A DNA stretch of 64,000 nt from the NCBI GenBank assembly GCA_030824275.1, contig JAVBXY010000005.1, forward strand, positions 186,001 to 250,000, written 5' to 3'. Below, piece after piece: positions 1,342-58,446 of the stretch; position 1 is the first letter of the stretch; the number at the start of each line of letters is the position of its first letter. Position numbers and translations under genes: made by a program. This DNA comes from Rhodocyclaceae bacterium. Lineage in GTDB: Bacteria; Pseudomonadota; Gammaproteobacteria; Burkholderiales; Rhodocyclaceae. A model generated the notes under the pieces. The model saw only the letters and a list, made by a program, of their open reading frames with translations, had not been told where the DNA came from and made no database searches.

Positions 1342-2811
1342 ATGAGCGCGCTGAGTTTCATCGGCGAACTGGCGCGGCGTGGCATCGTCGTCAAAGGCCT
1401 CGCCATTGACTCGCGCCGCGTGCAACCGGGCGACGTCTTTCTCGCCTGGCCCGGTACCCAGGTGGATGGCCGCGATTTCATTCCGCAGGCCATTGCCAAT
1501 GGTGCCGTCGCCGTTATTGCCGAGCCGGGGAAAAAAGTCGGCGCTGGTGGTACGGCGACCATGAATACGCCGATGCTGGAAGTGGCAGGCCTCGCCCGCG
1601 TCGCCGGCACCATTGCGCATTTCGTCTATGGCCGGCCTTCGGAAAAACTCTGGCTGGCCGGCGTCACCGGCACCAACGGTAAAACCTCCGTGTCGCAGTG
1701 GATCGCCCAGGCCATGAACGCGCTGGACTGCAAATGCGCGGTGATCGGCACACTGGGCAACGGTTTCCCTGGCTCGCTGGTCGATAGCCCCAACACCACG
1801 CCGGATGCCGTGACCCTGCATCGTGATCTCGCCGGCTTTGTCGCCGAAGGTGCTGTGGCCTGCGTCATGGAGGTGTCCTCCATCGGCCTCGATCAGGACC
1901 GGATCGGCGGCGCCGAATTTGATGTTGCCGTGTTCACCAATCTGACCCGCGACCATCTCGAATACCACGGCAGCATGGAGGCCTACGCCGCCGCCAAGGA
2001 AAAACTGTTTACCCGGCCTGGCCTGTCGGCGGCGGTGATCAACCTCGACGATGCGTTGGGTGTGGCGCTGGCCGCACGCCTGAAAGGGCGAGTCAAGACC
2101 TGGGGCTACACACTGGCCGACGGCATGGGCACGGACGAAGTTCTGCGTGCCGAGAATCTGAAGATGACAGCCTCGGGCCTCGCTTTCGATTTGCGCGGGA
2201 CGCATATCGAGGTGCCGGTAGTCGGTCGCTTCAATGCCGCCAACATTCTCGCCGTGATCGGTGCCCTGCTGGCCGGTGACGAAGCGCTGGATGACATCGC
2301 CGCCGTGCTGCGCCACATCGAGCCGCCGCCGGGTCGCATGCAGGCGATCGGCGGCAAGGACGAACCGCTGGTGGTGGTGGACTATGCCCACACGCCGGAC
2401 GCGCTGGAGAAGGCCCTCGGTGTGCTGCGTGAAACCGCCACCGCCCGCGATGGACAACTGCGCTGCGTATTCGGTTGCGGCGGTGATCGTGATCCCGGCA
2501 AGCGCCCGTTGATGGGCGCCGTCGCCGAGGCGCTGGCGAGCCAGGTCGTGGTGACCAGCGACAACCCGCGTAGCGAAGACCCGCTGGCCATCGCTAGGCA
2601 GATTCTGGCCGGCATGAAAAGCGGCCCCGCCGCCGCCATCGAACTCGACCGCGCCCGTGCCATTCGTCTAACTGTGACCGAGGCCGATGCCTGCGACGTG
2701 GTGCTGATCGCTGGCAAGGGCCATGAACCCTATCAGGAGATTGCCGGCGTGAAACATCCGTTTTCTGATCTCGATGCCGCAAAGTCGGCTCTGGCGGTAC
2801 GGCGATCATGA
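1342..2811 (+). CDS. murE: UDP-MurNAc-L-Ala-D-Glu:meso-DAP ligase MurE
   Basis: Cytoplasmic ATP-dependent ligase adding the third stem-peptide residue. 489 residues from ATG 1342; the frame is open further upstream, but the family N-terminus and the TGAGGG ribosome site fit this ATG. The P-loop G-T-N-G-K-T lies near residue 110, and the D-N-P-R motif at 407-410 is the meso-diaminopimelate recognition signature. Two copies of the 26-bp dispersed repeat sit in the gene. One gives K-V-G-A-G-G-T-A at residues 65-72 in a variable N-terminal loop; the other gives K-S-A-L-A-V-R-R at the extreme C-terminus (481-488). The stop overlaps the murF start as ATGA. Confidence 0.97.
   Translation: MSALSFIGELARRGIVVKGLAIDSRRVQPGDVFLAWPGTQVDGRDFIPQAIANGAVAVIAEPGKKVGAGGTATMNTPMLEVAGLARVAGTIAHFVYGRPSEKLWLAGVTGTNGKTSVSQWIAQAMNALDCKCAVIGTLGNGFPGSLVDSPNTTPDAVTLHRDLAGFVAEGAVACVMEVSSIGLDQDRIGGAEFDVAVFTNLTRDHLEYHGSMEAYAAAKEKLFTRPGLSAAVINLDDALGVALAARLKGRVKTWGYTLADGMGTDEVLRAENLKMTASGLAFDLRGTHIEVPVVGRFNAANILAVIGALLAGDEALDDIAAVLRHIEPPPGRMQAIGGKDEPLVVVDYAHTPDALEKALGVLRETATARDGQLRCVFGCGGDRDPGKRPLMGAVAEALASQVVVTSDNPRSEDPLAIARQILAGMKSGPAAAIELDRARAIRLTVTEADACDVVLIAGKGHEPYQEIAGVKHPFSDLDAAKSALAVRRS
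1533..1558 (+). repeat. 26-bp dispersed repeat, copy 1 (in murE)
   Basis: Forward copy. Matches the consensus halves AAAAGTCGGCGCTGG and CGNNACGGCGA with one change (CTGGTG). Translated in frame as K-V-G-A-G-G-T-A in a variable loop of MurE. Confidence 0.9.
2780..2805 (+). repeat. 26-bp dispersed repeat, copy 2 (3' end of murE)
   Basis: Forward copy with CAAA at the start and GGCTCTGG in the middle. It is read in a different frame from copy 1, as K-S-A-L-A-V-R-R, and forms the last codons of murE just before the ATGA overlap with murF. Confidence 0.85.
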
Positions 2812-4190
2812 GCATGATGACCCTGTTCGAAGCCGCTCGCGTCCTCGGTGCCCCGGCTCCGGCCAAGGATGCGATGTTCACCGCCGTGTCCACCGATTCC
2901 CGCGCCATCGCCGCCGATGAACTTTTCGTCGCGCTCAAGGGCGAGCATTTCGACGGCCATCAATATGTCGCTGATGTTCTGCATAAGGGTGCCGCCGGCG
3001 CCGTCGTGGACGCTGCCTTCGCCGCCGCTCATCCTGGCCTGCCGCTGATCGCCGTGCAGGACACGCGGCTCGCCCTCGGTGCCCTGGCCGCCGACTGGCG
3101 CGGCCGTTTCGACATTCCGCTGATCGGCGTTACCGGCAGCAACGGCAAGACCACGGTGAAGGAAATGTGTGCCGCCATCCTGCGCGCCCATCTCGGCCCG
3201 CAGTTTGGTGAGGGTGCGGTGCTCGCCACCACCGGTAATCTCAACAACGAAATCGGTTTGCCGCTGACCCTGTTGCGCCTGCGCGCCCACCACAAGGCGG
3301 GGGTAATCGAGATGGGCATGAACCATGCGGGCGAGATCGACTACCTGACGCGTCTGGCCGCGCCCACCGTGGCACTGGTGAACAACGCCCAGCGTGCCCA
3401 CCTGGCCGGCCTTGGTTCGATCCAGGACGTGGCCCTGGCCAAGGGCGAAATCTTTGCCGGCCTCGGTGCGAGCGGGGTCGCGGTGTTCAATGGCGACGAT
3501 GCACAGTGCGGCATATGGCAGCAGTTGTCGCTGGACTACCGGCAAGTCTGCTTCGGCCTCGATCACGATGCCGAACTGCGCGGCGATTTTGTCCCTCATG
3601 GTTTCGGTGGCCTGCTGCGACTGATCACGGCGGAGGGTACGCTGGCCGTCAATCTCGGCGTGCCGGGGCGACACAACGCCCGCAATGCCTGCGCCGCGGC
3701 CGCTGCAACCCTGGCTGCCGGTGTGCCCGGCGAGGCCGTGGTGCGCGGGCTGGAGGGCTATGCCGGCGTCAAGGGTCGCTTGCAACGCTGTCAGGGCAAG
3801 CAGGGGGCACTGGTCATCGACGACAGCTACAACGCCAATCCGGATTCCATGCGTGCCGCTATCGACGTGCTGGCCTCGATTCCCGGCCACCGTATCTTTG
3901 TCATGGGCGACATGGGCGAGGCCGGCGAGGCCGCCGGACAATTCCATGACGAGATCGGCGGCTACGCCAAGAGCCACGGCATCGACAAGCTCTACGCGCT
4001 GGGCGATCTGTCGGTAGCGGCGGCGCGCAACTTCGGCGAGGGCGGCGTGCATTTCGGCCGCATCGACGACTTGATCAAATCACTGAACGCCGATCTGGAC
4101 AATCAGACCACCGTCCTCATCAAGGGCTCCCGTTTCATGCGCATGGAGCGCGTGGTCGAGGCCGTCACGGAGAAAATCCATGCTGCTTGA
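2808..4190 (+). CDS. murF: UDP-MurNAc-tripeptide:D-Ala-D-Ala ligase MurF
   Basis: Cytoplasmic Mur ligase that adds D-Ala-D-Ala to the UDP-MurNAc-tripeptide. 460 residues. The Mur-ligase P-loop G-S-N-G-K-T-T starts near residue 110, followed by the central-domain stretch with E-M-G-M-N-H and the C-terminal D-D-S-Y-N-A-N-P motif typical of MurF. The start is the ATG inside the ATGA overlap with murE, and the end overlaps mraY by 11 bases, so translation is very likely coupled through all three genes. Confidence 0.97.
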
Positions 4191-5358: not shown

Positions 5359-6753
5359 ATGGAACTCACGGGCAGACACGTCCTCATCCTCGGCCTCGGC
5401 GAAACCGGCCTGGCCTGCGCGCGCTGGTGCGAGCGGCAGGGTGCCCGTGTGCGCGTGGCGGATACGCGGACGGCGCCGCCTTATCTGAACGAGCTGCATC
5501 GCCGTGTCGCCAGCGCCGACTTTTGCACGACCAGTTTCAACGAGGATTTCGACAAGAGTCTGCTTGACGGCATCGACCTGCTGGTCCTCTCGCCGGGACT
5601 TTCCGGCGGCCTGATGGTGGTGATCCACGCCCGCGCCGCCGGCATTCCGGTGGTCGGCGAGATTGAGCTCTTCGCGCGCGGCTTGCGGACCCTGGGCGGG
5701 AATGTTCCCGTCGTCGCCATCACCGGGACCAACGGCAAGACCACCACTACCGCCCTGACCGGCCATCTGCTCGCGGCCACCGGCAAGCGGGTCGGCGTGG
5801 CCGGCAACATCTCACCGGCGGCGCTGACGGCGCTGATGGATTTCCAGGATGCCGGCACTCTGCCGGAGGTATGGGTGCTGGAACTGTCGAGCTTCCAGCT
5901 CGAAACCACCGAGACGCTGAATCCGATGGCGGCGACGGTGCTCAATATTTCCGACGACCATCTGGATCGCTATATCGATCTTGATGAATACGCATCGGTC
6001 AAGGCTCGCGTCTTCCAGGCCGGCGCCGAGCATGCGGGGGTGCAGGTGCTCAACCGCGTCGACCGTCGTGTCGCCCGCATGGCATTGCCGGATCGCCGCA
6101 TCATCGGCTTCGGCCTCGATGCACCGGCGCATCCGGACGACTTCGGCCTGCGCCCCAATCGGGGCGAGACCTGGATCGTGCAGGGTGATCGTTTCCTGCT
6201 GCCGGTTTCCGAGCTGCCCATCAGCGGTCTTCACAATGCCATGAACGCTATGGCGGCCCTGGCCTTGTGCGTGGCACTTGGCTTCGATGCGGTGCCGCTA
6301 TTGCCGGCGCTGCGCGCATTTCGCGGCCTGCCGCATCGGGTCGAGAAGGTGGATGAGATCGATGGCGTCGCCTGGTTCGACGACTCCAAAGGTACCAATG
6401 TCGGCGCCACTGTAGCCGCTCTCGAAGGCATGGGGCGTAAGGTGGTGGTGATCCTCGGCGGCGACGGCAAGGGGCAGGACTTCTCGCCCCTGAAGCGGGC
6501 CGTGGCGCGCCATGCCCGCGCCGCCGTGCTGATCGGTCGTGACGGGCCGCTGATCGAAAAGATCATCGCCGATGCTGGCGTGCCGGTGGAGTGCGCCACT
6601 GACATGACTGACGCCGTGCGTCGCGCCAGCGCCCAGGCGCAGCCGGGCGACGCCGTACTGCTCTCGCCAGCCTGTGCCAGCTTCGACATGTTCCGCAACT
6701 ATGAGCATCGCGCCCAGGTGTTCATCGAGGCGGTGAAAGGCCTGCCGCGATGA
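5359..6753 (+). CDS. murD: UDP-MurNAc-L-alanine:D-glutamate ligase MurD
   Basis: Cytoplasmic Mur ligase adding D-Glu to UDP-MurNAc-L-Ala. 464 residues. It has an N-terminal Rossmann-type G-L-G-E-T-G motif, the P-loop G-T-N-G-K-T-T near 123, and the C-terminal D-D-S-K-G-T-N-V segment characteristic of MurD. A reversed copy of the 26-bp repeat encodes residues 48-56 (R-R-V-A-S-A-D-F-C). The stop overlaps the ftsW start as ATGA. Confidence 0.97.
5499..5524 (-). repeat. 26-bp dispersed repeat, copy 3 (in murD, antisense to the gene)
   Basis: Minus-strand copy; its reverse complement matches the consensus at all informative positions, with AC at the variable pair. It is translated on murD's strand as R-R-V-A-S-A-D-F, a third reading frame of the same DNA sequence. 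Confidence 0.9.
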
Positions 6754-8962: not shown

Positions 8963-10347
8963 AACATAAAGTCAAACGCATCCATTTCGTTGGCATCGGC
9001 GGTTCCGGCATGAGCGGCATCGCTGAGGTGCTGGCCAACCAGGGCTTCGAGGTCAGTGGTTCCGATCTCGCCGAGAGCGCGACGACGCGCCGATTGGCGG
9101 CGCAGGGCATCCGTGTCGATGTCGGCCATCGCCCGGAGAATGCGGCAACGGCCGATGCGGTGGTGGTGTCTACCGCCGTACGGGACGATAACCCGGAAGT
9201 GATGACCGCTCGCGAGCGCAAGGTGCCTGTGGTGCCCCGTGCCCAGATGCTGGCCGAGTTGATGCGCCTCAAGCAGGGCGTCGCCATCGCTGGTACCCAC
9301 GGCAAGACCACCACCACCAGCCTCGTTGCATCCTGCCTTGCCGAAGGCGGGCTGGACCCGACCTTCGTCATCGGTGGTCGTTTGAATTCCGCCGGCGCCA
9401 ACGCCCGTCTCGGCTCCGGCGAATTTCTCGTGGCCGAAGCCGACGAGTCGGACGCCTCCTTCCTCTTCCTGTCACCCGTCGTATCGGTGATCACCAATAT
9501 CGACGCCGACCACATGGAAACCTACGGCCACGATTTCGGTCGCCTCAAGCAGGCCTTCGTGGATTTCCTTCATCGCCTGCCGTTTTATGGCGTGGCCGTA
9601 GTCTGCAACGATGACCCCAATGTGCGCGAGATCATTCCCCGCGTCGCCAAGCAGATCGTCACCTACGGCATCGATGCACCTGCCAACTTCCGCGCCGAGA
9701 ACGTGGTGGCCGATGGCGGCACCATGCGCTTCGACTGCGTGCGCACCAACGGCAGTGTGTCGCGTCTGTCCATCGTGCTCAACTTGCCCGGTCGTCACAA
9801 CGTCCTCAATGCCCTGGCCGCGATTGCCGTGGCCACGGAAGTCGGCGTTGGCGACACGGCGATCGTCAAGGCCCTGGCCGAGTTCCGTGGCGTTGGCCGC
9901 CGCTTCCAGCGTTATGGTGAGGTTCCCTGTGCTGACGGCGGGCATTTCACACTGGTGGACGACTACGGTCACCATCCGGTTGAAATGGCGGCCACCATTG
10001 CTGCCGCGCGTGGTGCCTTTCCGGGCCGCCGACTGGTACTGGCCTTCCAGCCCCACCGCTACACCCGGACGCGCGACTGTTTCGAGGATTTCGTCAAGGT
10101 GCTCTCCGGTGTCGATGCCCTCCTGTTGGCCGAGGTCTACGCGGCTGGCGAGGCCCCCATCGTCGCCGCCGACGGCCGCACCCTGGTCCGCGCCGTACGC
10201 GTGGCGGGCAAGGTGGAACCCGTTTTTGTCGAGGACATCGTGGCCATGCCGACAGCCATCCTCGATGCGGTGCGTGACGGCGACGTGGTGATCACCATGG
10301 GCGCCGGTTCGATTGGCGCTGTGCCGGGAAAGCTTTCCGATGCCTGA
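8959..10347 (+). CDS. murC: UDP-MurNAc:L-alanine ligase MurC
   Basis: Cytoplasmic ligase that adds the first amino acid of the stem peptide. 462 residues from the ATG overlapping the murG stop; an in-frame TTG six codons earlier is less likely. N-terminal G-I-G-G-S-G-M-S-G and the P-loop G-T-H-G-K-T-T-T near 112 are diagnostic of MurC, as is the C-terminal Q-P-H-R-Y-T-R-T. A degenerate copy of the 26-bp repeat encodes E-V-G-V-G-D-T-A at residues 294-301, with no obvious length change against the family. Confidence 0.97.
9837..9862 (+). repeat. 26-bp dispersed repeat, copy 4 (in murC, degenerate start)
   Basis: Forward copy differing from consensus in the first two bases (GG for AA) and one internal base (GTTGG for GCTGG). 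Read as E-V-G-V-G-D-T-A. It could partly be chance convergence in a conserved protein, so it is the least certain copy. Confidence 0.65.
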
Positions 10348-20917: not shown

Positions 20918-21913
20918 GTGAGCAAGCATCCGACCATCGTCGAGGACGGGGATCAGGTCGTCGTTCTTGACCAGACCCGTCTGCCCCGCGAGGTCGCCAT
21001 GCTGCGTCTTGCGACGCTCGAAGACGCCGCCCACGCCATTCGCGTCATGCAGGTGCGCGGTGCGCCCCTGATCGGTGCCACCGCTGCCTATGGCGTCGCC
21101 CTTGGTCTGGCCGATGATGTTTCCGACGCCCGCCTGGCGCAGGTGATCGATACTCTGGCCGCAACCCGACCCACCGCCGTCAACCTGCACTGGGCCTTGG
21201 CGCGCATGCACCGCGTGCTGGAAAAGTCGGCGCTGGCGACACGGCGACAAACCGCCTGGAACGAGGCCCGTGCCATCGCCGCCGAGGATGTGATCGCAAA
21301 TGCCGCCATCGGTCAGCACGGCCTGCCGCTGCTACGCGCCCGCCAGCGCGGCAGCGACACCATACAGGTCATGACCCACTGCAATGCCGGCCGCCTCGCG
21401 ACCGTCGACCACGGCACCGCGATTTCGCCGGTGTATGCCGCCCATGCCGCCGGCCTGCCGGTGCATGTCTGGGTCTCGGAAACTCGCCCCCGCAACCAGG
21501 GCCTGCTCACCGCCTGGGAGCTGGCCGAGGCCGGCGTGCCGCACACCCTGATCGCCGACAATGCCGCCGGCCTGCTGTTGATGCAGGGTAAGGTGGACCT
21601 CGTCATCGTCGGTGCCGATCGCATCGCCGCCAACGGTGATACGGCCAACAAAGTCGGCACTTACCTCAAGGGTTTGGCTGCTCGCGAACACGGCGTACCG
21701 TTCTATGTTGCTGCACCGCTATCCACCATCGATTTCGCCTGCCCCGATGGTGCCGCCATTCCCATCGAGGAACGCGCCACCGACGAACTCGGTGCCGGCG
21801 ACGTGCCGGTGGCCAACCCGGCCTTTGACGTGACGCCGGCCGCACTGATCGCCGGTATCATTTCCGAGCGCGGTGTCGCTGTGCCGCAATCTCTGGCGTG
21901 CTGGCAATCGTGA
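20918..21913 (+). CDS. mtnA: S-methyl-5-thioribose-1-phosphate isomerase MtnA
   Basis: Isomerises methylthioribose-1-phosphate (and in some bacteria 5-deoxyribose-1-phosphate) to the ribulose-1-phosphate. 331 residues from GTG 20918. Family motifs: R-G-A-P-L-I-G near 47, catalytic Cys155 in T-H-C-N-A-G, and Asp234 in G-A-D-R-I-A-A-N-G-D with N-K-V-G-T-Y following. A repeat copy encodes K-S-A-L-A-T-R-R at 103-110. It starts 9 bases after secA and overlaps the class II aldolase gene, so the two probably act consecutively. Confidence 0.95.
   Translation: MSKHPTIVEDGDQVVVLDQTRLPREVAMLRLATLEDAAHAIRVMQVRGAPLIGATAAYGVALGLADDVSDARLAQVIDTLAATRPTAVNLHWALARMHRVLEKSALATRRQTAWNEARAIAAEDVIANAAIGQHGLPLLRARQRGSDTIQVMTHCNAGRLATVDHGTAISPVYAAHAAGLPVHVWVSETRPRNQGLLTAWELAEAGVPHTLIADNAAGLLLMQGKVDLVIVGADRIAANGDTANKVGTYLKGLAAREHGVPFYVAAPLSTIDFACPDGAAIPIEERATDELGAGDVPVANPAFDVTPAALIAGIISERGVAVPQSLACWQS
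21222..21247 (+). repeat. 26-bp dispersed repeat, copy 5 (in mtnA)
   Basis: Perfect consensus match with AC at the variable pair. Read in the K-S-A-L-A-x-R-R frame. Confidence 0.92.
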
Positions 21914-22539
21914 GCGATCTCGCTGCCCACGTATTGGCGACGGCGCGGGCGATGAATGCCTCCGGCATCAATCGCGGCAGCGCCGGCAATGTCAGCGCCC
22001 GTTGTGCGGACGGTTTTCTCATTACGCCCACTGGCATGGCCTACGATACCTGCGAGCCGGCCGACATGGCAAAAGTCGGCGCTGGCGGGACGGCGAGCGG
22101 CCGCCGCAAGCCTTCGTCGGAGTGGCGTTTCCACCACGACATCTATGCCGCCCGCCCCGAGGCCGGTGCGGTGATCCACACCCATTCCTCGTTCGCCACG
22201 GCCCTGGCCTGTCAGGAGCAGGGCGTTCCCGCCTTTCATTACATGGTGGCCCGTTTCGGTGGTGCCGATGTACGCTGCGCGGAGTATGCGACCTTCGGCA
22301 CGCAGGCGCTGTCGGATGTCATCCTCGCCGCCTTGGCGGATCGTTGCGCCTGCCTGATGGCGCATCACGGCATGCTGGTGTTCGGCCGTGATCTGGAGCA
22401 TGCACTGGCGCTCGCCGTGGAACTGGAAACGCTTTGCGAGCAGTATTGGCGGGTGCTCCAGCTGGGCGCGCCGAAGTTGCTGGCTGCCGACGAAATGGCC
22501 CGTGTGATCGAGAAGTTCTCGACCTACGGTCAGCAGTAA
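21910..22539 (+). CDS. Class II aldolase family protein (MtnB-like or Ald2-like)
   Basis: 209 residues from the GTG in the GTGA overlap with mtnA (another GTG lies four codons earlier). Class II aldolase/adducin fold: G-S-A-G-N-V-S-A-R near 23, catalytic Glu71 in K-P-S-S-E, zinc ligands His90 and His92 in H-T-H-S, and a third His in H-H-G-M-L-V-F-G near 152. Next to mtnA it could be methylthioribulose-1-phosphate dehydratase (MtnB) of the methionine salvage pathway. It could equally be the fuculose-phosphate-aldolase-like enzyme of the DHAP shunt, cleaving to dihydroxyacetone phosphate plus an aldehyde. No other salvage genes (mtnC, mtnD) are present here. A repeat copy encodes K-V-G-A-G-G-T-A at 55-62. 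Confidence 0.85.
   Translation: MSDLAAHVLATARAMNASGINRGSAGNVSARCADGFLITPTGMAYDTCEPADMAKVGAGGTASGRRKPSSEWRFHHDIYAARPEAGAVIHTHSSFATALACQEQGVPAFHYMVARFGGADVRCAEYATFGTQALSDVILAALADRCACLMAHHGMLVFGRDLEHALALAVELETLCEQYWRVLQLGAPKLLAADEMARVIEKFSTYGQQ
22071..22096 (+). repeat. 26-bp dispersed repeat, copy 6 (in the class II aldolase gene)
   Basis: Perfect consensus match with GG at the variable pair; read as K-V-G-A-G-G-T-A just before the conserved K-P-S-S-E motif. It lies only 824 bases after copy 5. Confidence 0.92.
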
Positions 22540-35023: not shown

Positions 35024-35107
35024 TCGCCGTTCCGCTTGCCCAGCGCCACTTGGCGCGCTCATCTATCGCCGTGTCACCAGGGCCGACTTTTTGGCACTGT
35101 TAGAATC
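35008..35107 (-). pseudogene. Duplicated remnant of the pyrF 3' end
   Basis: Positions 35011-35058 match the intact pyrF 3' end at 38961-39007 almost base for base: the first 17 bases are identical, then one gap and a few substitutions. Positions 35058-35107 then resemble an internal part of pyrF (39280-39328), including sequence on both sides of the dispersed repeat. The remnant therefore looks like pyrF with about 270 bp deleted, in the same orientation as the real gene. It marks the left edge of the helicase/AbiC/Fic module. Confidence 0.6.
35066..35091 (-). repeat. 26-bp dispersed repeat, copy 7 (non-coding)
   Basis: Minus-strand copy of the GGCCCTGG sub-type (AC at the variable pair), the same sub-type as the copies in pyrF and glnS. 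It lies between the GGDEF gene and the helicase gene, inside the pyrF-like remnant. Confidence 0.88.
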
Positions 35108-38956: not shown

Positions 38957-39787
38957 TTACCGCCAGCGGTTGATCGCGTCCCGCGTTTCCAGCGCCACCT
39001 GGCGCGCAGCGGCGGCGTAGTCCTCGTCCTTGCCGGCGTAGAGGATGGCGCGGGAGGAATTGATCATGAGGCCGGTGCCGGCGGCGGTTTTGCCGGCCTT
39101 CACCGTGGCTTCAATGTCGCCGCCCTGGGCGCCGATGCCGGGGACCAGCAGGGGCAGTTCGCCGACGATCTCGCGGACGCGGGCGATCTCGCCGGGGAAG
39201 GTGGCGCCGACGACGAGTCCCAATTGGCCGGCGTATTTGCCATCCGGGTTCCAGTCCTTGGCCACCATCTCGGCGACCAGCTCATAAATCGCCGTCCCGC
39301 CAGGGCCGACTTTTTGAAACTGTAAATCGCTGCCGCCGGGATTCGAGGTGCGACAGAGCAGGATCACGCCCTTGTCCTTGTACGCGAGCCAGGGCTCCAC
39401 CGAATCGCGACCCATGTAGGGGTTCACGGTCACAGCGTCGGCCCGGTAGCGCTCGAAGGCCTCGATGGCGTATTGCTCGGCGGTGCTGCCGATATCGCCG
39501 CGCTTGGCGTCGAGGATCACCGGCACGTTCGGATGCTTGTCGTGGATGTGGGCGATCAGCGCTTCGAGCTGGTCTTCCGCGCGGCGTGCGGCGAAGTAGG
39601 CGATCTGCGGCTTGAAGGCGCAGGCCAGGTCGGCCGTGGCGTCGGCGATGCCGGCACAGAACTGGAAGATCGCGTCCGGCTTGCCTCGCAGATGGGCGGG
39701 GAATTTCGCCGGGTCCGGGTCGAGGCCGACGCAGAGCAGGGAGTTGTTCTTTTGCCAGGCGGCCTTGAGTTGGGCGATGAAGCTCAC
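38957..39787 (-). CDS. pyrF: Orotidine-5'-phosphate decarboxylase
   Basis: Last step of UMP synthesis. 276 residues from a GTG that overlaps the glnS stop (GTGA). Catalytic Lys95 and Asp98 lie in L-D-A-K-R-G-D-I-G, followed by S-T-A-E-Q-Y-A, which marks the longer (subfamily 2) enzymes. A repeat copy encodes K-V-G-P-G-G-T-A at 149-156, between the T-S-N-P-G-G motif and Y-E-L-V-A. The 3' end is the sequence duplicated at 35008-35058. Confidence 0.95.
39289..39314 (-). repeat. 26-bp dispersed repeat, copy 8 (in pyrF)
   Basis: Minus strand, sense relative to pyrF; GGCCCTGG sub-type with GG at the variable pair. Read as K-V-G-P-G-G-T-A. Confidence 0.92.
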
Positions 39788-41571
39788 TTCTTGCTCCAGG
39801 AATCCTTCAGCGTCACAGCGCGATTGAACACCGGCGCGCCGGGCCTGGAGTCGATGCGGTCGGCGACGAAGTAGCCGTGGCGCTCGAACTGAAAGCGCTC
39901 TTCCGCAACCGCATCCTTCAGCGCGGCTTCGAGCTGGGCGGTGATGAGCTGTTTCGAATTCGGATTGATGTCGTCGAGGAAATCGCGGCCGCCGCTGCCC
40001 GGCGCTTCGACGGCGAAGAGACGGTCGTAGAGGCGCACTTCGGCGGCGTAGGCGTGTTTCGCCGAGACCCAGTGGATGTTGCCCTTGACCTTGTAGGTAT
40101 CGGCACCCGGCGTGCCGCTCTTGGAGTCGGGCATGTATTCGCAATGCACGGCGGTGATCTTGCCGTTAGCATCCTTGTCGCAGCCGATGCATTTGACGAC
40201 GAAGCCGTAGCGCAGTCGGACCATGTTGCCGGGGAAGAGGCGGAAGTAACCCTTGCTCGGCGTCTCCATGAAGTCCTCGCGCTCGATCCAGAGTTCTTTC
40301 GAGAAGGGCACCGGGCGCTTGCCCCAGTCCGGCTTTTGCGGATGATTGGGCGCTTCGCAGAGTTCTTCCTGACCTTCCGGGTAGTTGTCGATGATCAGCT
40401 TCACCGGATCGAGCACGGCGATGCGGCGCGGCGCGGTGTCGTTGAGATGCTCGCGCTGGCATTCCTCCAGCACGCTGATGTCGATCCAGGAATCCGACTT
40501 GGTGACGCCGATCATCTCGGCGAAATGACGGAAGCCTTCCGGCGTGAAGCCGCGACGGCGAGCGCCGACCAGCGTCGGCAGGCGCGGGTCGTCCCAGCCG
40601 TCCACGTGCTTCTCTTCGACGAGCTGGATCAGCTTGCGCTTGGACAGCACGACGTAGGAAAGATTGAGGCGGGCAAATTCGATCTGACGTGGCACCGGCT
40701 GTTCGATACAACCCAGTGTCGCCAGCGTGCTCAGCAGCCAGTCGTAGAAGGGCCGCTGGTCCTCGAACTCCAGGGTGCAGATGGAGTGGGTGATGTTCTC
40801 CAGCGCGTCCTCGATGGGATGGGCGAAGGTGTACATCGGGTAGATGCACCAGGCATCCCCGGTGTTGTGGTGTGTCGCCTTGCGGATGCGGTAGATGGCC
40901 GGGTCGCGCAGGTTGATGTTGCCCGAGGCCATGTCGATCTTGGCGCGCAGGATGTGTGCGCCGTCGGCGAATTCGCCGGCCTTCATGCGGCGGAACAGGT
41001 CAAGGTTTTCCGCTGGTGTGCGGTTGCGGAAGGGCGAGTTCTTGCCCGGCTCGGTCAGCGTGCCGCGATTGGCGCGCATCTCGTCGGCGGATTGGGAATC
41101 GACGTAGGCGTGGCCGGCTTCGACCAGCTTCTCGGCAAAATCGTACATCCACTGGAAGTAGTCGGAGGCGTAGTAGAGATTGCTCTCGCCCTTGACGTCC
41201 CAACTCCAGCCCAGCCACTTCACCGCGTCGAGAATCGAGACGACGTATTCCTTTTCTTCCTTCTCCGGATTGGTGTCGTCGAAGCGCATGTGGCAGGCGC
41301 CGTCGTAGTCGCGGGCAAGACCGAAGTTGAGGCAGATCGACTTGGCATGGCCGAAGTGCAGGTAACCATTGGGCTCCGGCGGGAAACGGGTGCGGATCTT
41401 CGCCGTCTCACCAGGGCCGACTTTTTGCTGGGCACCGGGACCGGGCTTGCCGGACCAGGTGCGCTGCGCATAGACGCCGGCGGCGAGGTCCGCATCAATG
41501 GCGTGGCGGATGAAGTTGGAGACGGGGGTCTTGGCGTCGGGGGTATCGCCGGGTGCTTTGTCATGGGCCAT
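39784..41571 (-). CDS. glnS: Glutaminyl-tRNA synthetase
   Basis: Class I aminoacyl-tRNA synthetase charging tRNA-Gln. 595 residues from ATG 41571. The HIGH-type motif is H-F-G-H (72-75) in the family segment P-P-E-P-N-G-Y-L, and the KMSKS equivalent is V-L-S-K-R-K. The repeat copy encodes K-V-G-P-G-E-T-A at 50-57, in the linker just before the catalytic core. Coupled to pyrF by GTGA. Confidence 0.96.
41400..41425 (-). repeat. 26-bp dispersed repeat, copy 9 (in glnS)
   Basis: Minus strand, sense relative to glnS; GGCCCTGG sub-type with AG at the variable pair. Read as K-V-G-P-G-E-T-A. Confidence 0.92.
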
Positions 41572-47441: not shown

Positions 47442-50400
47442 ATGAAATTCGATCCCGAGGCCCGCCGGGCGGCACGGCCTGCCATCAGCTTTGACGAATC
47501 CCTGCCGGTCAACGCCCGCCGTGCCGAAATCGCCGCCGCCATCCAGAAGCATCAGGTCGTCGTCATCTGCGGCGAAACCGGTTCCGGCAAGACCACGCAA
47601 CTGCCGAAAATCTGCCTCGAACTCGGGCGCGGGCTCAAGGGCCTGATCGGCCACACCCAGCCGCGCCGCATCGCCGCGCGGGCCACGGCCACGCGCATTG
47701 CGCAGGAATTGAAATCCGAGATCGGCCAGCACGTCGGCTTCAAGATTCGCTTCACCGACAAGACCACGCCGTCGAGCTACATCAAGCTGATGACCGACGG
47801 CATCCTGCTGGCCGAGACACAGACCGATCCACTGCTGCGCCAGTACGACACCCTCCTGATCGACGAGGCCCACGAGCGAAGCCTAAACATCGACTTCCTG
47901 CTCGGCTACCTAAAGTCGGTGCTGGCGAGACGGCGAGATTTGAAGGTGATCGTCACCTCGGCGACGCTGGATGCTGAACGCTTCAGCAAACATTTCGACG
48001 GCGCGCCGGTGATTGAAGTTTCCGGCCGCCTCTACCCCATCGAGACCCGCTACCGTCCCTTCGACGAGAAGAAGGACACCGATCTCAACGACGCCATCGT
48101 CGACGCCGTGGACGAAGCCCATCGCACCGGCCCCGGCGACGTGCTGGTCTTCCTGCCCGGCGAGCGCGAGATCCGCGAGGCAGCGGAAGCATTAAGAAAG
48201 CACCATCCTCCCGGCCTCGAAGTGCTGCCCCTGTTCGCCCGCCAGACCGCCGTCGAACAAGGCCGCGTCTTCGCGCCGCATCAGGGCCGCCGCGTGATAT
48301 TGGCGACCAACGTCGCCGAGACCTCGCTGACCGTGCCCGGCATCCGCTACGTCATCGACTCCGGCCTCGCCCGCGTCAAGCGCTACAGCCATCGCAACAA
48401 GGTCGAGCAGTTGCAGGTGGAGCCCATCGCCAAGGCAGCGGCCAGCCAGCGCGCCGGTCGTTGCGGCCGCGTTTCCGCCGGCGTCTGCATCCGCCTCTAC
48501 GACGAAGAGGATTTCAACAAGCGCCCGCCCTACACCGAGCCGGAAATCCTGCGCTCCTCGCTGGCCGGCGTCATCCTGCGCATGAAGTCCCTGCACCTGG
48601 GCGACGTCGAGGACTTCCCCTTCCTCGAAGCGCCGCTGCCGCGCATGGTCGCCGATGGTTATCAACTGCTCGCCGAACTCGGTGCCATCGACGAGACGAG
48701 CAAGGAACTGACCAAGGTCGGCTTTGAGTTGGCCAAGCTGCCGCTGGACCCGAAGATCGGCCGCATGATCCTCGCCGCCCGCGAACACAACTGCCTCAAG
48801 GAAGTGCTGATCATCGCCGCCGCCCTGGGCACGCAAGACCCCCGCGACCGGCCGCAGGAACAGGCCGCCGCTGCCGATCAGGCGCATGCGAAATGGAAGG
48901 ACGAGAAATCCGAGTTCCTTTCCTATCTCAAGCTGTGGGCCGCCGGCGACGAAATCTGGAAACACGAAACCTCCAACAAGCAGCGCCAGTGGTGCCGGCA
49001 GAATTTCATCAACTGGCTGCGCCTGCGTGAATGGCGCGACGTGCATGGCCAACTGATGACCCTGTGCCACGAACACGGCTGGAAGGAGAACCAGATCCCC
49101 GCCAGCTACGAGGCCATCCACAAGGCCCTGCTGACCGGCCTGCTCGGCCACATCGGCCTCATCAGCGAAGATGACAAGAACTACCTCGGCGCCCGCGGTA
49201 TCCGCTTCTACATCCATCCGGGTTCCAGCCTGGTGAAGAAGGCCGGGCGCTGGATCGTCGCCGCCGAAGTGGTCGAGACTTCGCGCCTCTTCGCCCGCTG
49301 CGTCGCCCGCATCGAGCCGGAATGGCTGGAGCAGGTGGGCGCCCATCTGGTGCGCAGCCACATCTACGAACCGCATTGGGAAAAGGGCCCGGGCCAGGTT
49401 GTTGCCTGGGAGCGGCTGACCCTGCACGGCCTGATGATCCACGCCAAGCGGCGCGTGCATTACGGCCCCATCGACCCCAAGCTCTCCCGCTCCATCCTGA
49501 TCCGCTCGGCCCTCGTCGAAGGCGAGATCGGCGAGGACTGGGCCAAGCGCTGGCGCTTCTTCCAGCACAACCAGAAACTCAAGAACGAGATCCAGAAGCT
49601 CGAACACAAGTCGCGCCGGCCCGACGTGCTGGTGGACGACGAACTGGTCTACGCCTTCTTCGATGCGGTGATTCCCGAGGGCATCACCACCCTGGCCGCC
49701 TTCGAGCACTGGCGGCGCGAGGCCGAGGCGCAGAACCCGAAGCTGCTGTGCCTGGAAAAAGACCAGCTCATGCGCCACGACGCGGCGGGCATCACCACCG
49801 ACGCCTTCCCTCCCTCGCTGGAACACCGTGGTCAGAGCTTTAAGCTCGTCTACCACCACGATCCCGGCGCCGCCGACGACGGCATCACGCTCTCGCTGCC
49901 GCTGGCCGCCCTCAACCAGTTGCCGGTGAATCGCTGCGAATGGCTGGTGCCCGGCCTGCTGAAAGAGAAGGTCATCGCGTTGTTGAAAACGCTGCCGCAG
50001 AAGTACCGCCATCGCGTGCAGCCCATCGACGCCTTCGCCGAAGAGTTCGCCGACGCCGAGCATGATCGCGACGAGACGCTCGTGCGTGCCCTGACCCGCG
50101 CCGTCGAAGAGAAGATCGCGCTCAAGCTGCCGCTGGATGCCTTCCGCAGCGGCGAACTGCGCTCGCACCTGTTCATGAATTTCCGCCTCCTCGACGAGCA
50201 TGGCGGCACGCTGGCCCTGTCGCGCAATCTGTCGGAACTGCGCGCGCAGTTTGGTGGCCGCGCCGCCGAGGCTTTCGCCAATGCCGATATAAAAGTCGGC
50301 GCTGGCGACACGGCAAGCACTACTGTTGTCGAGGGCGAAAAGGCCACGGGTTGGGCCTTCGGCGCCCTGCCCGAGTTATTGGAGTTGAAGGTCGCCGGCC

Positions 50401-53888: not shown

Positions 53889-53914
53889 AAAAGTCGGCGC
53901 TGGCGGTACGGCGA
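53889..53914 (+). repeat. 26-bp dispersed repeat, copy 12 (intergenic)
   Basis: Perfect consensus match with GT at the variable pair, in the 145-base gap between the toxin and methyltransferase genes. It shows that the sequence is not kept only for its coding value. Confidence 0.93.
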
Positions 53915-55033: not shown

Positions 55034-55086
55034 GGCTAGCGTTTGAATTCACCGGACTACGCGGTTTCATCGCGCAACGTTTGGGT
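55034..55086 (-). other. Degenerate attC-like site, cassette 2
   Basis: Read on the minus strand it runs from an R''-like ACCCAAAC through a small hairpin (TGCGCG / CGCGTA) and GTGAATTCAAAC to R'-like GCTAGCC. The arms are unequal and the core triplet is GCT instead of GTT, so it looks decayed or only attC-like. Confidence 0.4.
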
Positions 55087-55147
55087 TGATGGATGGGCTA
55101 AACGGGGAATGGGCCACGCCAACTCCGTTGCTTGGGCTATTTGGTAA

Positions 55148-55609
55148 TCAAATACGACGAACTGATTGCTGCCTGTTAAGAAAGTCTCGTAAAGATCCAC
55201 GGGGATTAACACTTGTGGCTGCAATAAGCATCAGCATGAATACATATCTTGCTGAAGATGTGTCGATGATTGATATGTCGATCGATTCTTCAAGGGTTGG
55301 AAGGTGTTGCTCAACCCATCCATCCACGAATTGGATGGACTCTTCCGGACCAAGCTTACTTAGTCCCCCGCGAACCTCTTGGAGGTCTTCAACTGTGAGA
55401 GCCTTTAGCTCTTCAGAAATAATAATTGTTTGAAGAATAATTGATTTGGCAAGAGTTGCTTTGTCCAAAGAGTTATGGGGCGATTGGATGTATTTCTTTA
55501 TCCATGTGGGAAACGGGCTAAAGCAAAGTTTATTTATATCGACTGTCTTTTTGGTTTGAAATACAAAGAAGAGAATAATTGCGACGGTGATTGTGATCAG
55601 TATTTCCAT
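55148..55609 (-). CDS. Hypothetical membrane-anchored protein, cassette 2 gene
   Basis: 153 residues; no family recognised. One N-terminal membrane helix (about 3-18) is followed by a basic stretch and an alpha-helical soluble part with E-E-L-K-A-L-T-V-E-D-L-Q-E-V. It is far richer in A+T than the core genes, and lies between two attC-like sites, as expected of an integron cassette gene. Confidence 0.65.
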   Translation of the reverse strand: MEILITITVAIILFFVFQTKKTVDINKLCFSPFPTWIKKYIQSPHNSLDKATLAKSIILQTIIISEELKALTVEDLQEVRGGLSKLGPEESIQFVDGWVEQHLPTLEESIDISIIDTSSARYVFMLMLIAATSVNPRGSLRDFLNRQQSVRRI

Positions 55610-55647
55610 GGTGAAGTGCTATTTTCGATAGTCGCGGATAAGTGAAT

Positions 55648-55714
55648 GTCTAAACGTAGAAGTGAGCGGCCTGCGCGGCTTTTCGCGCAGGCCCGCTCGA
55701 CTACCAGGTTCGCC
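55648..55714 (-). other. attC-like site, cassette 1
   Basis: On the minus strand: R''-like GGCGAAC (55708-55714), an unpaired spacer, an imperfect hairpin with arms 55684-55701 and 55662-55677 around a 6-base loop, a second spacer, then R'-like GTTTAGAC (55648-55655). One arm has 18 bases and the other 16; they pair fully apart from two unpaired extra bases on one arm, like the extrahelical bases of attC. The R'' with six flanking bases is exactly complementary to the sequence at the attI-side junction (57071-57083). Confidence 0.7.
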
Positions 55715-55724
55715 GTCTTAGCGC

Positions 55725-57050
55725 TCACTTGAGAAATTTCTCGTAGTCGGCCTTTACGCCGCTTGGAACACTCGCTGGATCGATGAGCGCTAAGTTCTGT
55801 TTGAATCGTTGGCGGCAAGATGGAAAGCTGCTAAGGCGCTGCCCCAATGTGGTTGCTGGTGACGACGCGATGCGAATCATCGTAGCGATTTCGCGGGGTG
55901 AAAACGACTTAATGATTTGGTCGTAGCTCGTAGCAGCGGCCCATGAAACACCGTATCTGTTTCCGACATTGCAACAAACGACAACCTGCACAAATGTTTC
56001 TTGCACTGTTTCTGGAACTGCGCCTTGTCGTGAGAGTTCGAGCAAGCGCTCAGCAAACGGGGGTTCGTTGTAGAAGTTGTTCATCCCGTTGTGAACGTTC
56101 CAAAGACGCTCGACGGCACGATAGAAAACCGCATGTTGCTCGGATTCATTCAGTAATGTAAGAAGTCCAAGCTTCTCGAAGAACTGTAGCGACGCTGTAT
56201 GTCGAGGCTCGTCGCCTTTGGCCGCGTACTCGCTGTGCTTGTTGATGAGATCCGAACGCAACGCGGAGGTGAACCCGGCTTTTAGCGAATTGCAGATGTC
56301 AAACGCATTTAGTCGAGAAGGCTCCGACGTATTTGGATCGCAGTAGATGCCATGAATCATCCCAGCGAGCATTTGGCGCTGTGCGTCATGGGTTTCGCCA
56401 AGTCGATGAACCCAGACACCGCACTGGTTTGCGTTGAAGCGTGCACCCTTAACCGCCGAAATAAAGGCGCCGATGTCGACGCCCTTCGGTGACGACGCAT
56501 CAGCGAGCGCATAGCGAACGCAACGATTTAGAAAGGTGGTGAACTCGCGGTCGTTTACCGTTCCGAGGGTGGGATGTGCAGCCGAAAAATTGTTTCGGAC
56601 GTCGCGGCATTGATCCAGGAAAAAGAAACCGTCCTCATTGACGAGATTCAGCTTTAAGCACAGTTCTAGCAATCGACTGTCTTGAAGTTCCAGCAGGTGC
56701 TTTTCTTCGAAATCTGACTGAGTAATCTGGGCAACGATTGGCAGGCCGAAATTTCTTACTTTCGTTCGGAGCTGAAGGATCGCTGCATTCCAGATGTAAT
56801 TCATTGCACCATCGAAGAGCCCTGTACTTACAGCAACGCACATTCTGGCTACCAGTTCACCTCTAAGGGCTACAGGCACATCTCTAAGCTCACGTGGCAA
56901 ATCGCGCCAAGCGTATTGAATTTCTTCATCACTCGCGAGAACGGTTCGCGGAATCCCCAGAGATGTAGTGAGCGCCGTGATCGCCGGCAGAATAGTTGTT
57001 GGCAGTGCCGGAAGCATAGGTTCAAGTGGATGGGGGACTATTGCTGACAC
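55725..57050 (-). CDS. Hypothetical protein with HEPN-like motif, cassette 1 gene
   Basis: 441 residues from GTG 57050, with GGAG eight bases upstream. No confident family. It is soluble and mostly alpha-helical. A central segment R-D-V-R-N-N-F-S-A-A-H-P contains an R-N-x5-H arrangement reminiscent of HEPN ribonuclease domains, which are common in toxin and anti-phage systems; this is a weak, motif-level inference. Base composition is nearer 50% GC than the core genes. It is bounded by an attI-like junction upstream and an attC-like site downstream. Confidence 0.7.
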   Translation of the reverse strand: MSAIVPHPLEPMLPALPTTILPAITALTTSLGIPRTVLASDEEIQYAWRDLPRELRDVPVALRGELVARMCVAVSTGLFDGAMNYIWNAAILQLRTKVRNFGLPIVAQITQSDFEEKHLLELQDSRLLELCLKLNLVNEDGFFFLDQCRDVRNNFSAAHPTLGTVNDREFTTFLNRCVRYALADASSPKGVDIGAFISAVKGARFNANQCGVWVHRLGETHDAQRQMLAGMIHGIYCDPNTSEPSRLNAFDICNSLKAGFTSALRSDLINKHSEYAAKGDEPRHTASLQFFEKLGLLTLLNESEQHAVFYRAVERLWNVHNGMNNFYNEPPFAERLLELSRQGAVPETVQETFVQVVVCCNVGNRYGVSWAAATSYDQIIKSFSPREIATMIRIASSPATTLGQRLSSFPSCRQRFKQNLALIDPASVPSGVKADYEKFLK

Positions 57051-57070
57051 AGGATCATCTCCAATGGTTG

Positions 57071-57092
57071 TAAGACGGCGAACGTTATTTAG
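57071..57092 (-). other. attI-like recombination junction
   Basis: On the minus strand the sequence reads CTAAATAACG followed by TTCGCC and GTCTTA. G^TTCGCC fits the conserved GTT core at an attI/cassette boundary. The 13 bases 57071-57083 are the inverse complement of 55708-55720 at the far end of the same cassette. Confidence 0.6.
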
Positions 57093-57184
57093 ACAGCAAT
57101 TTTGCAGGGTGTCGCAGCAGGCTTACTGCATAGCATGGACGATGTGTCACTGAAAATTCCTTGCAATCCTAGAGCTGCACCATA

Positions 57185-57204
57185 TACTGTTTTTATGATC
57201 AGTA
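57185..57204. promoter_or_regulatory. LexA (SOS) box
   Basis: TACTG, ten bases, CAGTA: a full match to both outer halves of the SOS consensus. As CTGT-N8-TCAG it is one base off CTGT-N8-ACAG. It lies just upstream of, and overlaps, the integrase stub. That is the place where LexA boxes control intI in known integrons. Confidence 0.75.
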
Positions 57205-57325
57205 CTAAAGCCACCCCAAGTCCTGCAAACCGCCGAGGGATTTTCCTTGCTCGCGAGTGCTTATGCGCTACAGCATACGGAGTGATCCGGCTTATGTCCA
57301 ATGGGTAGGTTTTGCCAGTGCTGCG
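57195..57325 (+). pseudogene. Integron integrase (intI) 5' remnant, frameshifted
   Basis: From ATG 57195 one frame gives an N-terminus with T-P-S-P-A-N-R-R and A-R-E-C-L. After a small indel near 57261 the third forward frame continues as M-R-Y-S-I-R-S-D-P-A-Y-V-Q-W-V-G-F. This closely follows the conserved IntI N-terminal segment of the type Y-S-I-R-T-E-x-A-Y-V-x-W-V-x-x-F. No tyrosine-recombinase catalytic region follows. The true start could lie elsewhere, as the ATG falls inside the LexA box. Confidence 0.6.
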
Positions 57326-57366
57326 ATGAGCTGCATGACTGGTACGGCCGGCCGGTTTGACGCATC

Positions 57367-58446
57367 GTGAATCCGTCTCCACCCAGAGGCCGTGGCGCGG
57401 CCTTCAATCCGGACAACCGTTACGCGGCGTGGCAGCGGGAGGCGGCGGACGACGGTTGGTGGAATGATGGCGAGGAGATGGCGGCGCCCCTGACGACGGA
57501 GCTGATTGTCGATACGGCCAAGTCGGTGATCAGCTACAACGAGTCGCCGGACATTCCCTATGACCGGTCCATCAATCCCTATCGCGGTTGCGAGCATGGC
57601 TGTTCCTATTGTTTCGCGCGGCCGTCGCATGCCTATCTGGGTTTGTCGCCGGGGCTGGATTTCGAGACCAAGCTGGCTTACAAGGCCGATGCGGCGGAGC
57701 GCCTGCGGGCGGAGCTGGCGAAGCCGCGCTACGTGTGCCAGCCGGTGGCGCTGGGCATCAACACGGATGCCTGGCAGCCGGTGGAGCGTAGCCTGCGGGT
57801 GACGCGGGGAATTCTGGAGGTGCTGGCGGAGTGTCGGCATCCGGTGACCATCGTCACCAAGTCGGCGCTGATCCTGCGCGATCTGGATTTGCTGGCGGAG
57901 ATGGCGCGGGAGCATCTGGTGCATGTGGCGATTTCGGTGACGACGCTGGATGCGGCGCTGGCGCGGCGCATGGAGCCACGGGCGCCGTCCTGCCAGCGCC
58001 GACTTTTGGTGATCCGCGAGCTGGCCGATGCTGGGGTGCCGGTGACGGTGCTGGCGGCGCCGCTGATTCCGGCGCTGACGGACCACGAGATGGAGGCGAT
58101 CTTCCAGGCGGCGGCCGCTGCTGGGGCGACCTCGGCGGGCTACATCCTGCTGCGCCTGCCGCACGAGCTGAAGGTGCTGTTCCGCGACTGGCTGGCGCAT
58201 CACTATCCGGGGCGGGCGGCGCATGTGTATAGCCTGCTGCGGCAGATGCATGGCGGCAAGGAATACGACAGCGCGTTCGGCCGCCGCCAGCGCGGGGCCG
58301 GGCCGCTGGCGGAGATCATCGCGCAGCGCTGCCGGGTGGCGCTGCGCCGCTGTGGGCTGGATGCACCGTCACTGGTGCTGGACTGCGGAAAGTTTCGCCG
58401 CCCGGCTGCGACGAATGGAGCGCCGGCGCAAGGGATGCTGTTTTGA
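57367..58446 (+). CDS. Radical SAM protein, PA0069/SplB-like family
   Basis: 359 residues from GTG 57367; an in-frame TGA at 57358 rules out earlier starts. The cluster motif C-E-H-G-C-S-Y-C (CxxxCxxC) is intact, with N-P-Y-R-G before it and F-A-R-P-S-H after it. These proteins resemble spore photoproduct lyase-like radical SAM enzymes, but the substrate is unknown. A reversed repeat copy encodes residues near 206-214. The LexA box lies about 160 bases upstream, so weak SOS read-through is possible but unproven. Confidence 0.88.
   Translation: MNPSPPRGRGAAFNPDNRYAAWQREAADDGWWNDGEEMAAPLTTELIVDTAKSVISYNESPDIPYDRSINPYRGCEHGCSYCFARPSHAYLGLSPGLDFETKLAYKADAAERLRAELAKPRYVCQPVALGINTDAWQPVERSLRVTRGILEVLAECRHPVTIVTKSALILRDLDLLAEMAREHLVHVAISVTTLDAALARRMEPRAPSCQRRLLVIRELADAGVPVTVLAAPLIPALTDHEMEAIFQAAAAAGATSAGYILLRLPHELKVLFRDWLAHHYPGRAAHVYSLLRQMHGGKEYDSAFGRRQRGAGPLAEIIAQRCRVALRRCGLDAPSLVLDCGKFRRPAATNGAPAQGMLF
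57982..58007 (-). repeat. 26-bp dispersed repeat, copy 13 (in the radical SAM gene, antisense)
   Basis: Minus-strand copy with changes at the last base and within the variable part. Translated on the gene strand as A-P-S-C-Q-R-R-L-L, a fourth reading frame of the repeat. Confidence 0.82.

What the first reader, a model, noticed from the sequence alone, without database searches (positions are those of the whole stretch)
1533..58007. A 26-bp non-palindromic sequence is scattered 13 times, mostly inside conserved genes
Copies lie at 1533, 2780, 5499(-), 9837, 21222, 22071, 35066(-), 39289(-), 41400(-), 47911, 50291, 53889 and 57982(-). The consensus is AAAAGTCGGC(G/C)CTGG followed by (C/T)GNNACGGCGA, with only the NN pair free to vary (GT, AC, GG or AG). 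That is about one per 4.5 kb, far beyond chance for 26 bp. Eleven copies are in coding sequence (murE twice, murD, murC, mtnA, class II aldolase, pyrF, glnS, hrpA twice, radical SAM) and two are outside intact genes. Inference: a DNA-level signal such as an uptake, segregation or repair/recombination motif, or a small mobile repeat that spread into tolerant sites. I do not know a described element with this sequence.
Basis: partly seen in the sequence, partly recalled or inferred. Interest (0 to 1): 0.88.

Follow-up and report, generated by a model that had tools for sequence, protein, structure and literature searches.

The report
Likely new bacterial DNA-uptake signal
A 26-letter DNA word is written about 700 times through this bacterium's genome and, in altered 'dialects', through the genomes of several related genera; it most likely marks DNA as 'own kind' for uptake from the surroundings, a device known to me from two other bacterial families.

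Summary
About 71 of 395 genomes of its family carry 20 or more copies of a generic form; of 386 genomes of other families in the order, one exceeds 5. Lineages use different dialects with the same bipartite layout and spacing: AAAGTCAGTC-N8-ACGGCG in genome G010, AAACTCGGCGC(C/T)GGC-N3-GCGGC (263 copies) in G283. Where relatives can be aligned, copies are in-place substitutions, not insertions. They show no replication-strand bias, are spread fairly evenly, are over-represented outside genes, prefer one reading frame inside genes, and are sparser in virus-labelled contigs. Two genomes of carrier genera have 5 and 0 copies. This resembles DNA uptake sequences, which the papers I read describe in Neisseriaceae and Pasteurellaceae. 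Best explanation: a further, separate uptake-signal system (confidence 0.8). No uptake experiment was found and the receptor was not identified: ComEC and ComP_DUS/FimT-type pilins occur in carriers and non-carriers alike.

The parts
1533..1558 (+). motif copy, 0 mismatches, in murE, sense, read as KVGAGGTA
   Evidence: frame and relatives; gene
2780..2805 (+). motif copy, 2 mismatches, at the 3' end of murE, read as AKSALAVRR
   Evidence: copies at the same place in G001 and G019
5499..5524 (-). motif copy, 0 mismatches, antisense in murD
   Evidence: copies at the same place in G008 (2 mismatches), G001 and G019 (4 each)
   Evidence: copies at the same place in G001 and G008
9837..9862 (+). 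motif copy, 3 mismatches, in murC, read as EVGVGDTAI
   Evidence: copies at the same place in G001 and G008, and a 6-mismatch form in G019
21222..21247 (+). motif copy, 0 mismatches, in an mtnA-type gene (IF-2B family)
22071..22096 (+). motif copy, 0 mismatches, in a class II aldolase gene
35066..35091 (-). motif copy, 0 mismatches, between a GGDEF gene (ORF ends 35023) and a UvrD-like/NERD helicase gene (ORF from 35091)
39289..39314 (-). motif copy, 0 mismatches, in pyrF
41400..41425 (-). motif copy, 0 mismatches, in glnS
47911..47936 (+). motif copy, 2 mismatches, in an hrpA-type helicase gene
50291..50316 (+). motif copy, 1 mismatch, in the same hrpA-type gene
53889..53914 (+). motif copy, 0 mismatches, in a stretch with no ORF of 150 aa or more
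57982..58007 (-). motif copy, 2 mismatches, antisense in a radical SAM gene

Best explanation
The motif is a DNA uptake sequence: a self-recognition mark read when these bacteria take up DNA for natural transformation. A surface receptor on the type IV pilus or competence machinery (inferred, not identified) binds the two blocks, AAAAGTCGGC at the left and ACGGCG at the right. DNA carrying a copy enters preferentially and recombines into the chromosome, so copies accumulate where the encoded amino acids or the intergenic sequence tolerate them, by biased uptake with or without selection. When receptor specificity changes, the genome-wide motif drifts to a new dialect; when specific uptake is lost, copies decay by point mutation. 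Shown here: abundance, near-confinement to one family, dialects, in-place origin at two testable sites, strand symmetry, fairly even spread, reading-frame preference, near-universal ComEC in the family, and lower density in virus-labelled DNA. Inferred: that uptake is the function, the receptor, and the evolutionary drive.
For: 723 copies, 360/363 by strand, control 0. De novo, its pieces head the list of over-represented 10-mers in the samples of G000, G171 and G019, and the dialect AAAGTCAGTC heads it in G010 (36 against 0.07 expected), 33 of 39 seeds there being followed by ACGGCG at the same distance. Generic bipartite form at 20 or more copies in about 71 of 395 family genomes by hand count; of 386 genomes of other families one exceeds 5, G493 with 17. 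G283 has 263 exact copies of its own dialect against 0-2 in each of 18 congeners, control 0. In 464 kb of the own genome sites fall sharply from 13 at 3 mismatches to 2 at 4 and background beyond, with no flank signal. Relatives align without gaps through the motif at murC and murG, where non-carriers differ from it at 7-14 positions. Of 65 intragenic copies 26 are in one sense frame (KVGAGxTA), p about 8e-6 for uneven frames; 23 of 95 intergenic against 13.7% noncoding, p 0.004. The abstract of PMC2346458 reports a one-orientation frame bias for known uptake sequences. Counts per 20 kb are more even than random, variance/mean 0.48, one-sided p 0.03. ComEC in 381 of 395 family genomes and in 67 of the 71 carriers; the four without are 79-85% complete (hand cross). 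Pilin-type N-termini in 22 own-genome ORFs, 21 over the cut-off.
Against: No uptake or transformation experiment was found for a carrier. ComEC is also present in non-carriers, and in the low-copy genomes G178 and G270, so it does not discriminate. No receptor co-distributes with the motif: ComP_DUS pilins in 29 of 30 carriers and non-carriers, GspH/FimT in 27 of 30 with two carriers lacking a match; the ComP-like pilin of the own genome's C18 cluster has no close match in carriers G001 and G008, and a tree of 14 ComP-like pilins does not track dialect. Inverted pairs, common in terminators for known uptake sequences, are rare here: 1 of 74 neighbouring gaps is under 100 bp. Some phage-like contigs carry copies. 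In the de novo test, words unrelated to the motif in non-carriers G018, G005 and G034 and in G178 score as high as the motif does in the 80 kb of G019, so that test alone is weak for G019. At about 24 largely fixed positions the motif is far longer than the 9-12 bp DUS and USS cores. Carriers G010 and G023 lack copies at murC, murG and murD, and G019 at murG.
Confidence: 0.8

Rival explanations
1. A recombination or segregation signal (Chi-like, KOPS-like or matS-like) that acts inside the cell on the chromosome.
For: Dispersed through the genome, kept at the same place in core genes of related genera, and present in some phage-like contigs, which could gain from a Chi-like site.
Against: No strand bias: 360/363 genome-wide; 36/25 relative to GC skew, p 0.20, and 14/20 in a dialect genome, p 0.39. 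Found in all 20 stretches sampled, so not confined to one domain. About 24 fixed bases against about 8-13 for such signals (recalled). A species-level dialect would need a housekeeping protein to change specificity.
Confidence: 0.1
2. A small mobile or selfish repeat that inserts into tolerant sites.
For: Many near-identical copies; some excess outside genes.
Against: Relatives show substitution without gaps through the motif at murC and murG; the murD and first murE sites lie in variable stretches with indels among relatives and are uninformative. Flanks show no target duplication or shared sequence. 26 bp is not a multiple of 3, yet the host frames stay open.
Confidence: 0.03
3. A binding site for a nucleoid-associated protein, methyltransferase or regulator unrelated to DNA uptake, with lineage-specific specificity.
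For: Bipartite layout with a looser spacer, clearest in G010, looks like a two-part protein contact; Type I restriction targets are bipartite too (recalled).
Against: Type I targets have about 7 fixed bases and are not known to me to be enriched (recalled). Copies inside genes on both strands and in six frames do not suggest transcription control.
Confidence: 0.06

Closest known systems
DNA uptake sequence (DUS) of Neisseriaceae and its dialects
   Same: Abundant asymmetric motif, dialects by lineage, copies in permissive places of the core genome (PMC3630211, abstract and the section on DUS counts read; PMC2397512, passages read).
   Different: DUS is 10-12 bp and read by the minor pilin ComP; here about 26 bp and bipartite. 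About 1900 exact DUS in N. meningitidis and N. gonorrhoeae against 723 copies here counted with up to 3 mismatches (28 of 96 sampled copies exact when S and Y are allowed). Inverted pairs are rare here. Receptor unknown, other family.
Uptake signal sequence (USS) of Pasteurellaceae
   Same: A conserved left core after an A-run followed by a downstream element: eHin-USS is AAAGTGCGGTCAATTTT (PMC12616744, passage). The left block AAAAGTCGGC looks similar, possibly by chance.
   Different: The right element here is GC-rich ACGGCG, not AT-rich; no evidence of common descent. The receptor proposed there, ComN/PpdA (abstract), was not tested here.
FimT-type DNA-binding minor pilins
   Same: GspH/FimT-type pilins match in 27 of 30 genomes examined and are candidate receptors.
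   Different: FimT as a DNA receptor is known to me from the title and abstract start of PMC8897410 (listing); whether it is sequence-specific was not checked. FimT presence does not separate carriers from non-carriers here.

Membership tests
DNA uptake sequence (DUS/USS functional class) | Hundreds to thousands of copies of one asymmetric motif in the genome | tested here: met
   723 copies with up to 3 mismatches, control 0; other carriers
DNA uptake sequence (DUS/USS functional class) | Among the most over-represented words found de novo | tested here: met
   First 10-mer in the G000, G171, G019 and G010 samples; in G283 the dialect word ranks behind another repeat, ATGCCAGACA. G019's score is no higher than unrelated words in non-carriers
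DNA uptake sequence (DUS/USS functional class) | Equal on both strands, no replication-strand bias | tested here: met
   360/363; 36/25 and 14/20 against GC skew; GC skew is only a proxy for replication direction
DNA uptake sequence (DUS/USS functional class) | Dialects that differ between lineages | tested here: met
   G010, G019 and G283
DNA uptake sequence (DUS/USS functional class) | One orientation preferred in one reading frame | tested here: met
   26 of 65 in sense frame 2 with a home-made gene caller; known systems per abstract of PMC2346458
DNA uptake sequence (DUS/USS functional class) | Rare in recently acquired or viral DNA | tested here: inconclusive
   42 copies in 768 kb of 18 virus-labelled records chosen because each has at least one; truncated-Poisson rate 0.047/kb against 0.202/kb in the own genome; hosts unknown; accessory genes not tested
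DNA uptake sequence (DUS/USS functional class) | Inverted pairs, often in terminators (frequent, not defining) | tested here: not met
   1 of 74 neighbouring gaps under 100 bp in 464 kb
DNA uptake sequence (DUS/USS functional class) | Carrier has the competence channel ComEC | tested here: met
   381 of 395 family genomes; 67 of 71 carriers by hand cross; DprA, ComEA and PilQ not tested
DNA uptake sequence (DUS/USS functional class) | Cognate receptor | tested here: inconclusive
   ComP_DUS and FimT-type pilins present but not discriminating
DNA uptake sequence (DUS/USS functional class) | Motif raises DNA uptake in an experiment | not testable with these tools
   needs a bench assay
Neisserial DUS or Hin/Apl-USS by sequence | Consensus GCCGTCTGAA, AAGTGCGGT or ACAAGCGGT | tested here: not met
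   The consensus differs (known consensus); so not a member of these sequence families
Mobile repeat | Insertion with empty sites in relatives | tested here: not met
   Ungapped substitution at murC (21 relatives) and murG (21 relatives, one with a gap beside the motif); murD and murE sites uninformative
Chi/KOPS-type signal | Strand bias toward replication or terminus | tested here: not met
   by GC-skew proxy

The most novel reading that the evidence does not exclude
A third, independently evolved self-DNA recognition code, with its own dialects, gains and losses across at least nine genera of environmental betaproteobacteria, read by a receptor unlike ComP or ComN or at a later step such as processing or recombination of incoming DNA.
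Probability: 0.3. Interest if true: 0.92.

Novelty: new variant of a known kind. Interest (0 to 1): 0.82.

Why it matters
The papers I read name uptake-sequence systems in Neisseriaceae and Pasteurellaceae. A further system in environmental bacteria, with clean dialects and low-copy genomes inside carrier genera, would give an independent replicate for the open question why such sequences evolve (molecular drive or selection for conspecific DNA). It would offer many natural pairs for finding the receptor by co-variation, predict natural competence in bacteria not known for it, and give a watermark for tracing which genes moved between genera.

Tried and rejected
Mobile repeat: contradicted by ungapped orthologous alignments at murC and murG and lack of flank signal. 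Chi/KOPS/matS: disfavoured by strand symmetry and presence in all stretches sampled. Artefact of codon usage: rejected by 0 in shuffles, 0 in the reversed control, and intergenic copies. ComEC as discriminator: fails, it is almost universal in the family. The ComP_DUS pilin of the own genome's C18 minor-pilin cluster as a general receptor: fails, carriers G001 and G008 have no close match. ComP_DUS and GspH/FimT presence: not discriminating. A ComP-like tree mixes genera and does not follow dialect; two of 16 selected loci (G008, G178) dropped out through my length and tail filter, so 14 were compared. Literature searches: searches returned no paper; one search returned 21 with motif strings, 20 listed, unrelated by title; one listing, not read; listings, from which the papers named in the report were opened or cited from the listing.

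Weak points: the gene caller is home-made; one search uses GC skew as a proxy; one search's density comparison mixes hosts; the sample of G000 is 20 stretches chosen by me plus the window; the G270, G354 and G283 samples were small (58, 29 and 90 kb) and G178 rests on 100 kb, so 'no dialect' in G178 and G270 is provisional, and an unrelated signal there is not excluded; the figure of 71 carriers is a hand count and leaves out G283, whose dialect the generic pattern misses.
Full report
Observation. The pattern AAAAGTCGGCSCTGGYGNNACGGCGA with up to 3 mismatches occurs 14 times in the window, against 0 in 100 shuffles. Nothing in the window lies at 4-6 mismatches; the next matches are at 7.

Genome. 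The window is C16:186001-250000 of an 85%-complete, 38-contig assembly of 3,577,214 bases. It has 360 forward and 363 reverse copies, with 0 for the pattern read backwards. In 464 kb (20 stretches of 20 kb plus the window) the mismatch classes 0 to 4 hold 18, 30, 32, 13 and 2 sites against the strict consensus; from 5 on the numbers are near those of one first-order Markov resampling. With S and Y allowed the classes are 28, 30, 26, 11 and 1. The 95 sites show no conservation outside the 26 bp; positions 18-19 are loose and position 26 is weak. All 20 stretches hold 1 to 6 copies, more even than random placement (variance/mean 0.48, one-sided p 0.03).

Who carries it. In 60 relatives plus the own genome, G001 (631), G008 (718), G019 (87) and G023 (30) stand out; 21 of 61 have any match. 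A generic bipartite form (AAAGTC-N-G-N10-ACGGC, exact) over 395 genomes of the family reaches 20 or more in about 71 genomes (hand count) from genera g1, g2, g9, g11, g20, g24, g70, g88 and g90, while most others stand near control level. Among 399 genomes drawn from the order, 13 belong to the family; of the remaining 386 only G493 (17 copies) exceeds 5. A six-gene protein tree of 21 genomes puts carriers G000, G001, G008, G019 and G023 in one clade (support 0.96) and the dialect genome G010 elsewhere, next to non-carrier G004 (0.98). The history is therefore either old presence with repeated loss, or more than one gain.

Dialects. In G010 the top de novo 10-mer is AAAGTCAGTC (36 against 0.07 expected in 320 kb). 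The aligned sites read (A)AAAGTCAGTC, eight loose positions, ACGGCG, with ACGGCG at that distance in 33 of 39 seeds. In G019, 7 of 11 seed matches have CGGCA where the window's motif has CGGCG. G283, in the same genus as G019, has 8 generic matches but AAACTCGGCGCYGGC-N3-GCGGC 263 times, against 0-2 in each of 18 congeners and 0 in the control. G178 (g11) has 5 and G270 (g20) has 0 generic matches; no word related to the motif is among the ten listed for their 100 and 58 kb, nor for 100 kb each of non-carriers G018, G005 and G034. Unrelated words there score as high as the motif does in G019's 80 kb, so this de novo test is strong for G000 and G010 but weak for G019.

Substitution, not insertion. 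At murC, the window's EVGVGDTAI faces EVGVPDEAI-like sequences in 21 relatives, with no gaps. Carriers G001 and G008 keep the DNA motif (2 and 3 mismatches), G019 shows it with 6, and the other 18 differ at 7 to 14 positions. At murG, G000, G001 and G008 share it (2-3 mismatches); the others, G019 included, differ at 8 to 14, with one gap beside the motif in G017. At murD, G000 (0), G008 (2), G001 (4) and G019 (4) share it, but this and the first murE site lie in variable stretches with indels, so they say little about insertion. Carriers G010 and G023 have no copy at murC, murG or murD.

Inside genes. With a home-made gene caller (397 genes, 86% coding), 65 of 95 sites are inside genes, 7 at edges and 23 intergenic (noncoding fraction 13.7%; p 0.004). 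Of the 65, 26 are in sense frame 2, read as xKVGAGxTA, where the two loose bases are codon positions 2 and 3; the six frames are used unevenly (p 8e-6). The abstract of PMC2346458 reports that in known uptake-sequence genomes one orientation is commoner in the reading frame.

Strand. Relative to local GC skew, 36 sites lie on the G-rich and 25 on the C-rich strand in G000 (sites with skew under 0.02 left out; p 0.20), and 14 and 20 in G010 (p 0.39).

Viruses. Several look like phage by my own reading of translations, such as tail-tip, tape-measure or primase proteins (no family search was run). In 18 such records, chosen because each has a copy, there are 42 copies in 768 kb; a zero-truncated Poisson rate is 0.047 per kb against 0.202 in the own genome. 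Copies are thus sparser but not absent, and the hosts are unknown.

Machinery. ComEC is found in 381 of 395 family genomes and in 67 of the 71 carriers. The own genome has 22 ORFs with a pilin-type N-terminus, 21 over the cut-off; of eight scanned, two match ComP_DUS and three GspH. ComP_DUS pilins occur in 29 of 30 and GspH in 27 of 30 genomes chosen from carriers and non-carriers; G010 and G069, carriers without a GspH match, do have further pilin-type ORFs beside their ComP-like gene. The best receptor guess, a minor pilin, stays a guess.

Literature. Searches: 'DNA uptake sequence' + Rhodocyclaceae: none; motif strings: 21 papers, 20 listed, unrelated by title; none; listings; one listing, not read. 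PMC3630211: abstract and the section on DUS counts. PMC12616744: abstract and passages. PMC13020248: passages, which report uptake signals in terminators of Neisseriaceae and Pasteurellaceae. PMC2397512: passages. PMC2346458: abstract. What I saw of them does not mention this motif or family. The library holds open-licence papers only, so absence from print is not established.

Verdict. The motif behaves like an uptake sequence in most respects open to computation. It is not a neisserial DUS or a Pasteurellaceae USS by sequence. Function, receptor and the history of gain and loss remain to be shown.

Noticed in passing
G022:C12:64177-66034; G106:C1:1461266-1502266; G079:C66 and C104 (listings): Some genomes with few copies have them clustered within a few kb to tens of kb, as if carrier DNA had been imported (or a MAG contaminated); the motif may serve as a donor watermark.
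   Followed up: no
G493 (family f38): One genome outside the family has 17 generic matches; the ten listed include canonical and G010-type forms. Transfer or contamination not resolved.
   Followed up: no
G283 stretches L248-L252: A second repeat with 10-mer ATGCCAGACA (11 against 0.07 expected) is strongly over-represented in this genome.
   Followed up: no
L296:883-2238, record G435: A virus-labelled contig carries five motif copies in the same orientation, the first four 316 bp apart.
   Followed up: partly
G000:C18:186109-187782 and G000:C8:24762-32023: Two minor-pilin clusters, each with a ComP_DUS-type and a GspH/FimT-type pilin; the C18 ComP-like protein has near-full-length matches of 60-79% identity in five other family genomes.
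   Followed up: partly
G171 stretches L268-L272: A word containing AGACCCCGGT is over-represented (7 against 0.13 expected) besides the motif.
   Followed up: no
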